Positions 40,126 through 41,189 of a stretch of 51,087 nucleotides of DNA are shown here, piece by piece. This DNA is from an uncultured Acidobacteriota bacterium. Its GTDB lineage: Bacteria > Acidobacteriota > Thermoanaerobaculia > UBA5066. Each line of letters starts with the position of its first letter. The first letter of the stretch is position 1. The stretch spans positions 1-51,087 of the forward strand of contig CAIMWE010000236.1 of assembly GCA_903845115.1 (NCBI GenBank). Reading direction: 5' to 3'. The translations under genes and the position numbers were made by a program. The notes beneath the pieces are model-generated. The model was given only the letters and a program-made list of their open reading frames with translations, was not told the DNA's origin and did not search any database.

Positions 40126-40210
40126 GCGCGTGTCCTCGTCGCTCCGGCCGATCTCCTCCGTCCGTTTTTTCGGAAGATGAAAGAAAAGCGACGCGTCAAG
40201 AAAAAAATTC

Positions 40211-40238
40211 TTGATTCGCGGTGGGAAATTCTTACAAT
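40211..40238 (+). promoter_or_regulatory. Sigma70-like promoter of the micro-histone-like unit
   Basis: TTGATT at 40211-40216, a 16-base spacer and TACAAT at 40233-40238, both close to consensus and set in an AT-rich stretch (about 40195-40260) that stands out from the GC-rich surroundings. Inverted arms CTTGATT (40210-40216) and AATCAAG (40236-40242) frame the promoter and could be an operator. Predicted start site near 40245. Confidence 0.6.
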
Positions 40239-40244
40239 CAAGTC

Positions 40245-40438
40245 GGAACAAAAAAAACGGCGACGTGATCACTAGTCACTTCGCCGTTTCACGGAAACCC
40301 CGAATCTTTGAAACCGATCTAATGACGGCAGCCGACAGATCGGAAGACGCGTGGCCCCCGTCCTGCGAGGGACAGCCAAATTAGCACGCGGCTTTCGGGC
40401 CTGTCAATCAACTCTGCCAAGAGGAGGTGACATAAACC
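40245..40438 (+). other. Structured 5' leader of the micro-histone-like gene
   Basis: The 377 bases between mqnD and the small gene hold no other coding frame I can support. From the predicted start site the ~194-base leader contains the strong hairpin at 40255-40289, a second stem CCGATCT/AGATCGG (40314-40320 with 40337-40343) and a short GTCC/GGAC stem near 40360-40375, and it ends with a perfect Shine-Dalgarno AGGAGGTGA at 40422-40430. It matches no riboswitch class that I recognise. Confidence 0.45.
40250..40289 (-). terminator. Hairpin with minus-strand T8 tail (also a leader hairpin on plus)
   Basis: Nine base pairs AAACGGCGA/TCGCCGTTT (40255-40263 with 40281-40289), one C-T mismatch, then GTGA/TCAC (40265-40268 with 40276-40279) around a seven-base loop. 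On the minus strand it is followed by eight T, a good intrinsic terminator for leftward transcripts; the nearest leftward operon is glmU-glmS-uvrD, ending about 900 bases away. On the plus strand only three T follow, so there it is more likely a leader structure. Confidence 0.5.
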
Positions 40439-40513
40439 ATGGCAACGAAGAAGGCCCCCAAGAAGGCAGCCAAGAAGGCCGCGAAGAAGCCCGTCAAGAA
40501 GGCCAAGAAGTAG
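40439..40513 (+). CDS. 24-residue Lys/Ala-rich histone-H1-like micropeptide
   Basis: ATG at 40439 to TAG at 40511-40513, only 24 codons. Apart from Met, Thr, Val and two Pro, every residue is Lys or Ala, arranged as repeated Lys-Lys pairs every four residues (MATKKAPKKAAKK at the start). This is the composition of bacterial histone-H1-like tails (HctA/AlgP/Lys-rich C-terminal domains) without any globular part. Reality is supported by a perfect AGGAGGTGA Shine-Dalgarno, its own promoter and its own terminator. It probably binds nucleic acid or another polyanion by charge; this is inference. It could also be a leader peptide, but no gene follows before the terminator. Confidence 0.65.
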   Translation: MATKKAPKKAAKKAAKKPVKKAKK

Positions 40514-40550
40514 TTCTAACCCTTTAGTATTTAAGGTTTTCCGGGATACG

Positions 40551-40579
40551 GGGGCTCTTTTTGGGCCCCTTATTTTTTT
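40551..40579 (+). terminator. Intrinsic terminator of the micropeptide unit
   Basis: GGGGCTC (40551-40557) pairs with GGGCCCC (40563-40569) with one G-U pair and a five-T loop, followed by TTATTTTTTT. It is 38 bases after the micropeptide stop codon. Confidence 0.75.
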
Positions 40580-40664: not shown

Positions 40665-40685
40665 GTATATGGAGAGTTATATACT
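40665..40685 (+). promoter_or_regulatory. Palindromic operator overlapping the padR -10 box
   Basis: GTATAT (40665-40670) and ATATAC (40679-40684) are perfect inverted arms separated by eight bases, the arm spacing usual for PadR dimers. TATACT at 40680-40685 is a near-consensus -10 inside the right arm and ends six bases before the GTG start at 40692. Bound PadR would block its own promoter, and the transcript would be leaderless. No clear -35 is visible. Confidence 0.55.
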
Positions 40686-40691
40686 TTCCGG

Positions 40692-41189
40692 GTGTCCCTT
40701 CCCCACGTCCTCCTCGGGCTCCTTTCCCGCGGTCCGGCGAGCGGATGGGACCTCCACGCCCGCATGTCGAGGGATCCTTCGCTCGGCTGGGACGCGGACC
40801 TCGCCCAGATTTACCCGGCGCTCCGCCTCCTCTTGCGCGGCGGCTTCATCGCGATGAAGCGTCGCCGGTCGGTGAAGGGGCCGGCGCGTCGCGAGTACCG
40901 TGTGACCTCGGCGGGCCTGCGGGAGTTCCGGGAGTGGCTCGCCGAACCTCCCGGGCTCCCGCGCACGAAGGACACCGCGCTCGCGCGCCTCGCCTTCCTC
41001 GAGAAGCTCCGCCCGGTCGACCGGCGGGCCCGCCTCGTCGCATACCGCGGCCTGGTCGCCGAGGCGCTCCGGGCCGCGGCCCCGGTTTCGACGGCCGCGA
41101 AACGCCGCCGTCGCGCGCTGCTCGAGACCGAGCTGGCCTGGGTCGACGCCGAGGCGATGCTCCTCGCCGTGCAGGCCGGCGACGGTTGA
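40692..41189 (+). CDS. PadR family transcriptional regulator
   Basis: 165 residues from the GTG at 40692. The N-terminal winged helix shows LPHVLLGLLSRGPASGWDLHARM, LAQIYPALRLLLRGGFIAMKRR and REYRVTSAGLREFREWL, the PadR signature, followed by a helical C-terminal dimerisation domain (~85-165). The palindrome overlapping its -10 box suggests autoregulation. No transporter or enzyme gene follows on the same strand, so its targets lie elsewhere. Its TGA stop abuts the opposing uvrD stop in the palindrome TGATCA. Confidence 0.85.
   Translation: MSLPHVLLGLLSRGPASGWDLHARMSRDPSLGWDADLAQIYPALRLLLRGGFIAMKRRRSVKGPARREYRVTSAGLREFREWLAEPPGLPRTKDTALARLAFLEKLRPVDRRARLVAYRGLVAEALRAAAPVSTAAKRRRRALLETELAWVDAEAMLLAVQAGDG

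What the first reader, a model, noticed from the sequence alone, without database searches (positions are those of the whole stretch)
40195..40579. Free-standing transcription unit for a 24-residue Lys/Ala micropeptide
Seen: a near-consensus promoter (TTGATT-N16-TACAAT), a ~194-base leader, a perfect AGGAGGTGA Shine-Dalgarno, a 24-codon frame made almost only of Lys and Ala with two Pro, and an intrinsic terminator, all within ~370 bases and in an AT-rich island. Known: Lys/Ala/Pro repeats form the DNA-compacting tails of bacterial H1-like proteins, which usually are longer. Inference: a minimal histone-tail peptide, probably highly expressed, acting on the nucleoid or RNA. Genes this short are routinely skipped in annotation.
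Basis: partly seen in the sequence, partly recalled or inferred. Interest (0 to 1): 0.75.

Follow-up and report, generated by a model that had tools for sequence, protein, structure and literature searches.

The report
Lysine-rich micropeptide gene with switching leader
In one order of uncultured Acidobacteriota, a free-standing gene makes a tiny lysine-rich peptide of 19-25 residues behind a conserved RNA leader that can fold in two ways, one of which hides the ribosome-binding site; neither the leader nor the peptide matched a catalogued family.

Summary
They are conserved as one unit, beside the same padR (and mqnD) genes, in 16 of 16 genomes (three families, one order of Acidobacteriota) in which the region is assembled. 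The frame behaves as coding: 19-25 codons, 44-58% Lys, synonymous changes exceeding non-synonymous. In the home family CUGUC can pair either upstream (P2, SD open) or downstream past the SD (SD hidden); the second helix also covaries. Best reading: a polycationic, nucleic-acid-binding micropeptide whose translation is set by a two-state leader. Feedback by the peptide is the trigger I favour, weakly. Nucleoid binding is untested. The unit was not found outside this order (samples of 149 class and 396 phylum genomes). Not ordinary, but unproven: the genomes appear to be MAGs and no expression data were available.

The parts
40195..40215 (+). Inverted repeat CAAG-N9-CTTG with an A-tract, overlapping the -35 box (possible operator or UP element)
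   Evidence: Sequence; kept in most of f1 and as the palindrome CAAGAAATATTTCTTG in f2
40211..40238 (+). Promoter TTGATT-N16-TACAAT
   Evidence: Only site; counterpart in nearly all relatives
40255..40289 (+). P0, hairpin close to the predicted 5' end of the mRNA
   Evidence: Folds; 12 cells changed on both sides against 4.0 in shuffles
40327..40418 (+). P1-P4 leader element: P1 40327-40331/40414-40418, P2 40334-40338/40401-40405, P3 about 40341-40351/40387-40398, P4 40360-40363/40370-40373; conserved CCAAATTAGCAC 40376-40387 and CAATC after P2
   Evidence: covariation; distribution; coordinates
40402..40432 (+). Alternative hairpin hiding the SD: 40402-40406 with 40428-40432; exclusive with P2
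40422..40430 (+). Shine-Dalgarno AGGAGGTGA
   Evidence: GGAGGTG invariant in relatives
40439..40513 (+). ORF of the 24-residue Lys/Ala micropeptide
40550..40578 (+). Intrinsic terminator
   Evidence: conserved in relatives

Best explanation
This is a conserved one-gene transcription unit. Its mRNA starts with a hairpin (P0), carries a folded element (P1-P4) immediately before a strong SD, and encodes a polycationic micropeptide. Shown by sequence comparison: the unit, the coding frame, the P0-P4 folds and, in the home family, a second helix that pairs the 3' strand of P2 (CUGUC) with UGACA just past the SD. Inferred: the two folds are ON (P2 formed, SD open) and OFF (SD inside a hairpin) states of a translational switch, P0 protects the 5' end, and the peptide binds nucleic acid (DNA or RNA) through charge. 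For the trigger I favour feedback by the peptide on its own leader (about 0.3); a small ligand, ion, temperature or another protein is also possible. Feedback is favoured because the element is single-copy and always sits before the same gene.
For: Conservation of the unit in 16 of 16 genomes with the region assembled. Coding pattern and kept Lys composition. Leader covariation: 29 cells changed on both sides against 9.7 in shuffles, 90.8% paired against at most 45% when slid; P0 likewise. The SD-hiding helix: own arms -10.4 against swapped -9.0 kcal/mol, P 0.0016 for all and 0.02 with one per genus; pair counts. One leader match per genome.
Against: No transcript, ribosome footprint, probing or binding data. 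The SD-hiding helix is clear only in f1; f3 could use another stretch, and f2 shows no clear equivalent. All evidence comes from related sequences of one order, and the A4 alignment was fitted to the model. Lys-rich composition alone does not identify a target.
Confidence: 0.55

Rival explanations
1. The leader is a riboswitch: P1-P4 with its conserved CAAnnTAGCAC and CAATC is an aptamer for a metabolite or ion (for instance a polyamine or Mg2+), and the micropeptide is the effector.
For: Nearly invariant bases that are mostly unpaired in the model and two exclusive folds around the SD.
Against: No Rfam match; one copy per genome, always before the same gene, whereas metabolite riboswitches often precede several genes.
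Confidence: 0.2
2. The folds only stabilise the mRNA and keep the SD open; expression is constitutive and the alternative hairpin is incidental.
For: A strong SD, a hairpin near the 5' end and an intrinsic terminator; UGA after GGAGG is also part of the SD complement, so part of the second helix would be kept anyway.
Against: The part of the second helix beyond the SD also stays complementary while its sequence changes; nearly invariant bases outside helices.
Confidence: 0.2
3. A Lys attenuator: the Lys-rich frame is a leader peptide and the terminator controls the gene downstream.
For: Half of the codons are Lys and a terminator follows 37 bases after the frame.
Against: The next gene is a PadR regulator, not a lysine gene, and has its own promoter-like TATACT and palindrome. 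The most conserved part is upstream of the frame, and Ala is nearly as common as Lys.
Confidence: 0.05
4. The transcript is a non-coding RNA and the frame is an accident.
For: The leader is more conserved than the frame.
Against: Start, frame, stop, SD spacing (5-10 nt after GGAGGTG) and Lys composition are kept in 16 genomes, with pS above pN.
Confidence: 0.03

Closest known systems
Bacterial H1-like Lys/Ala/Pro tails (AlgP, PhaF; Hc1/Hc2)
   Same: Composition: Lys, Ala and Pro in short repeats; such peptides from AlgP bind DNA in vitro (PMC9239181).
   Different: 19-25 residues with no head domain, against a 154-aa repeat on a 124-aa helical domain in AlgP; here a structured leader RNA precedes the gene; no Pfam or NCBIfam match; DNA binding untested.
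Type 2 glutamine riboswitch (downstream-peptide motif, RF01704)
   Same: A conserved structured 5' leader before genes for small proteins, restricted to one bacterial group (PMC6316151).
   Different: No Rfam match here; single copy instead of multiple; different bacteria and proteins; no ligand known.
Autoregulatory ribosomal-protein leaders, and small basic ribosomal proteins such as bTHX
   Same: A short basic protein with a structured leader before its own gene (from general knowledge).
   Different: No bTHX above cut-off in 61 genomes, so this is not bTHX; no r-protein leader of Rfam matched.
Leader-peptide attenuators (for example ilvB-II of Corynebacterium)
   Same: A short frame rich in one amino acid, associated with a conserved RNA (PMC10272879).
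   Different: No lysine gene follows; the conserved RNA lies before the frame, and padR has its own promoter-like site.

Membership tests
Bacterial H1-like proteins | Lys/Ala/Pro-rich basic repeat | tested here: met
   Peptides of 16 genomes, 44-58% Lys
Bacterial H1-like proteins | Match to a curated family model | tested here: not met
   No Pfam or NCBIfam match; 20-25 aa is very short for such models
Bacterial H1-like proteins | Binds or compacts DNA | not testable with these tools
   Needs a binding assay
Riboswitch | Conserved, covarying 5' leader with two exclusive folds around the SD | tested here: met
   Leader covariation; second helix in f1 only
Riboswitch | Match to a known class | tested here: not met
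   No Rfam family at the leader
Riboswitch | Binds a ligand | not testable with these tools
   Needs probing with ligands
Ribosomal protein bTHX | Match to PF17070 | tested here: not met
   None over cut-off in 61 genomes; the Thermus control rings; the window peptide has no Pfam match
Amino-acid attenuator | Leader peptide rich in the regulated amino acid, then a terminator, before a gene for that amino acid | tested here: not met
   First two features present, but the next gene is padR with its own promoter-like site

The most novel reading that the evidence does not exclude
A new class of cis-regulatory RNA that senses its own micropeptide product (or a polycation or other ligand) and switches translation of a head-less, histone-tail-like peptide of about 20 residues.
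Probability: 0.35. Interest if true: 0.8.

Novelty: new variant of a known kind. Interest (0 to 1): 0.6.

Why it matters
If right, a conserved 75-base gene is guarded by an uncatalogued two-state RNA leader more than twice its length. It would show that Lys/Ala tails, usually seen as appendages, can be maintained as free proteins under their own RNA control. It also gives a compact (~370 bp) system that can be moved into E. coli and tested. Gene finders tend to miss such genes, so the family would stay invisible without the leader as a handle; the covariance model provides that handle.

Tried and rejected
Rfam on the window and on seven related loci: nothing at the leader. Leader beyond the order: none among 149 class genomes or 396 phylum genomes, both with strict filters; permissive filters on 39 relatives gave none outside the order. 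The exact-pattern scan of genome contigs gave 28 hits, 12 of them strong model hits, all Acidobacteriota; the other 16 are about what chance would give (my estimate, roughly 17), and the best of them, Lampropedia, lies before a Cas9-like gene. Apparent absence in G003, G009 and G013: contig ends, or the whole region missing, so not evidence of loss. bTHX: absent. Upstream ORF of 37-38 codons in f2/f3 that ends in the SD: rejected as a selected protein, because the differences I counted by hand in f3 avoid third positions (sequences). A pattern search for similar starts elsewhere in the class gave only a 137-aa protein outside the order. Literature searches found no description; subscription papers are mostly not covered.

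Full report
Check of the observation. The promoter is the only sigma-70-like site found in 2.4 kb, and the frame is the only short Lys-rich ORF in the window. GC falls from 0.70 in the window to 0.35 in the promoter and about 0.55 in the leader. The neighbours are a menaquinone-biosynthesis gene (VitK2_biosynth, mqnD-like, divergent), a PadR regulator and a UvrD-type helicase.

Conservation. A DNA search of 61 genomes found the unit, usually from promoter to terminator, in 11 of the 14 genomes of the family (f1, own genome included) and part of it in one genome of another family. A covariance model of the leader extended this to f2 (2 of 2) and f3 (3 of 3). The same 16 genomes hold the padR gene next to it. 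The three f1 genomes without it have contig ends at mqnD or inside uvrD, or lack mqnD, uvrD and padR altogether, so their absence is best read as missing data. GenBank titles of matching contigs are Acidobacteria/Acidobacteriota MAGs, one of them named Thermoanaerobaculia. No match was found elsewhere in the class or phylum samples, with the caveat that those runs used strict filters.

The frame. All 16 leaders are followed, 5-10 nt after GGAGGTG, by an ATG and 19-25 codons ending in TAA or TAG. Examples are MPAKKKAAKKSTKKAKKGKK, MATKKKAAKKATKKGGKKKK and MATKKKAAPKKKATAKKSSKKK. Lysine is 44-58%, nearly always AAG. The synonymous proportion of differences exceeds the non-synonymous in all compared pairs that differ (0.40 vs 0.04 for window and G011). 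Repeats make the alignment uncertain between distant pairs. The peptide matches no Pfam or NCBIfam model. Longer Lys/Ala proteins and tails occur in the class, among them a separate 56-58 aa gene in two relatives.

The leader. The window leader folds better than shuffled sequence (z -3.4). The relatives show a nested rod P1-P4 whose 3' end lies a few bases before the SD. On 15 sequences 29 cells are changed on both sides with pairing kept, against 9.7 in shuffles, and 90.8% of cells pair against at most 45% when the partner is slid. P1 changes from GGCAG/CTGCC to GGTAG/CTACC in f2. P0, close to the predicted 5' end, covaries as well. CAAnnTAGCAC and CAATC, mostly unpaired in the model, are nearly invariant in f1 and largely kept in f2 and f3. 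Caveats: the alignment was fitted to the model, and the sequences are related.

Two states. Minimum-energy folds often hide the SD, by pairing CUGUCA with UGACAG beyond it. The outer part of that helix differs between genera but stays complementary: GGAC/GUCC in G012 and G008, GGAC/GUUCC in G010, GGCUC/GAGUC in G006, GUUCUG/CAGAAC in G007. Own arms pair better than arms swapped between genomes (-10.4 vs -9.0 kcal/mol; P = 0.0016 for all, 0.02 with one per genus), and pair counts agree. In the window itself this helix is among the weakest (-5.4). CUGUC cannot be in P2 and in this helix at once. This is the basis for the switch, which remains inferred. In f3 another stretch (CACCUC in P3) could hide the SD, and in f2 no clear equivalent was seen.

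Function. The peptide is a head-less polycation. Lys/Ala/Pro peptides of this composition bind DNA in vitro in the AlgP case (PMC9239181). That makes nucleic-acid binding likely but does not choose between nucleoid, ribosome, other RNA or polyphosphate. Single copy and constant association with one gene make autogenous control the trigger I would test first, at about 0.3.

Comparison. Its works-like relatives are r-protein autoregulatory leaders and the type 2 glutamine riboswitch that controls small-protein genes (PMC6316151). It is a member of neither on the tests made here. The Corynebacterium ilvB case (PMC10272879) warns that a conserved RNA can be a leader-peptide attenuator; here the downstream gene and its own promoter-like site argue against that.

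Verdict. Mechanism and trigger are open.

Noticed in passing
window 40665-40692: Palindrome GTATATGGAGAGTTATATAC with a -10-like TATACT about 7 bases before the likely padR GTG start; a similar TATAT..TATAT element precedes padR in f2/f3. padR may be leaderless and self-regulated.
   Followed up: partly
window 40195-40215; L048 and L049 upstream of the -10: Inverted repeat CAAG..CTTG overlapping the -35 box, a perfect palindrome CAAGAAATATTTCTTG in f2: a possible operator or UP element.
   Followed up: no
L045-L049, about 106-109 bases before the SD: f2/f3 leaders hold an open frame of 37-38 codons that spans P1-P4 and stops at the TGA inside the SD; differences within f3 avoid third positions, so no sign of protein-level selection.
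   Followed up: partly
L031 and L032, around 1501-1566: Two relatives (G005, G011) carry a separate 56-58 aa Lys/Ala gene starting MATKKAAKK, a possible longer cousin of the micropeptide.
   Followed up: no
L020, around 1501-1545: A class relative (G020) has a Lys/Ala stretch fused to what looks like a SWIB-type domain (by eye, not searched).
   Followed up: no
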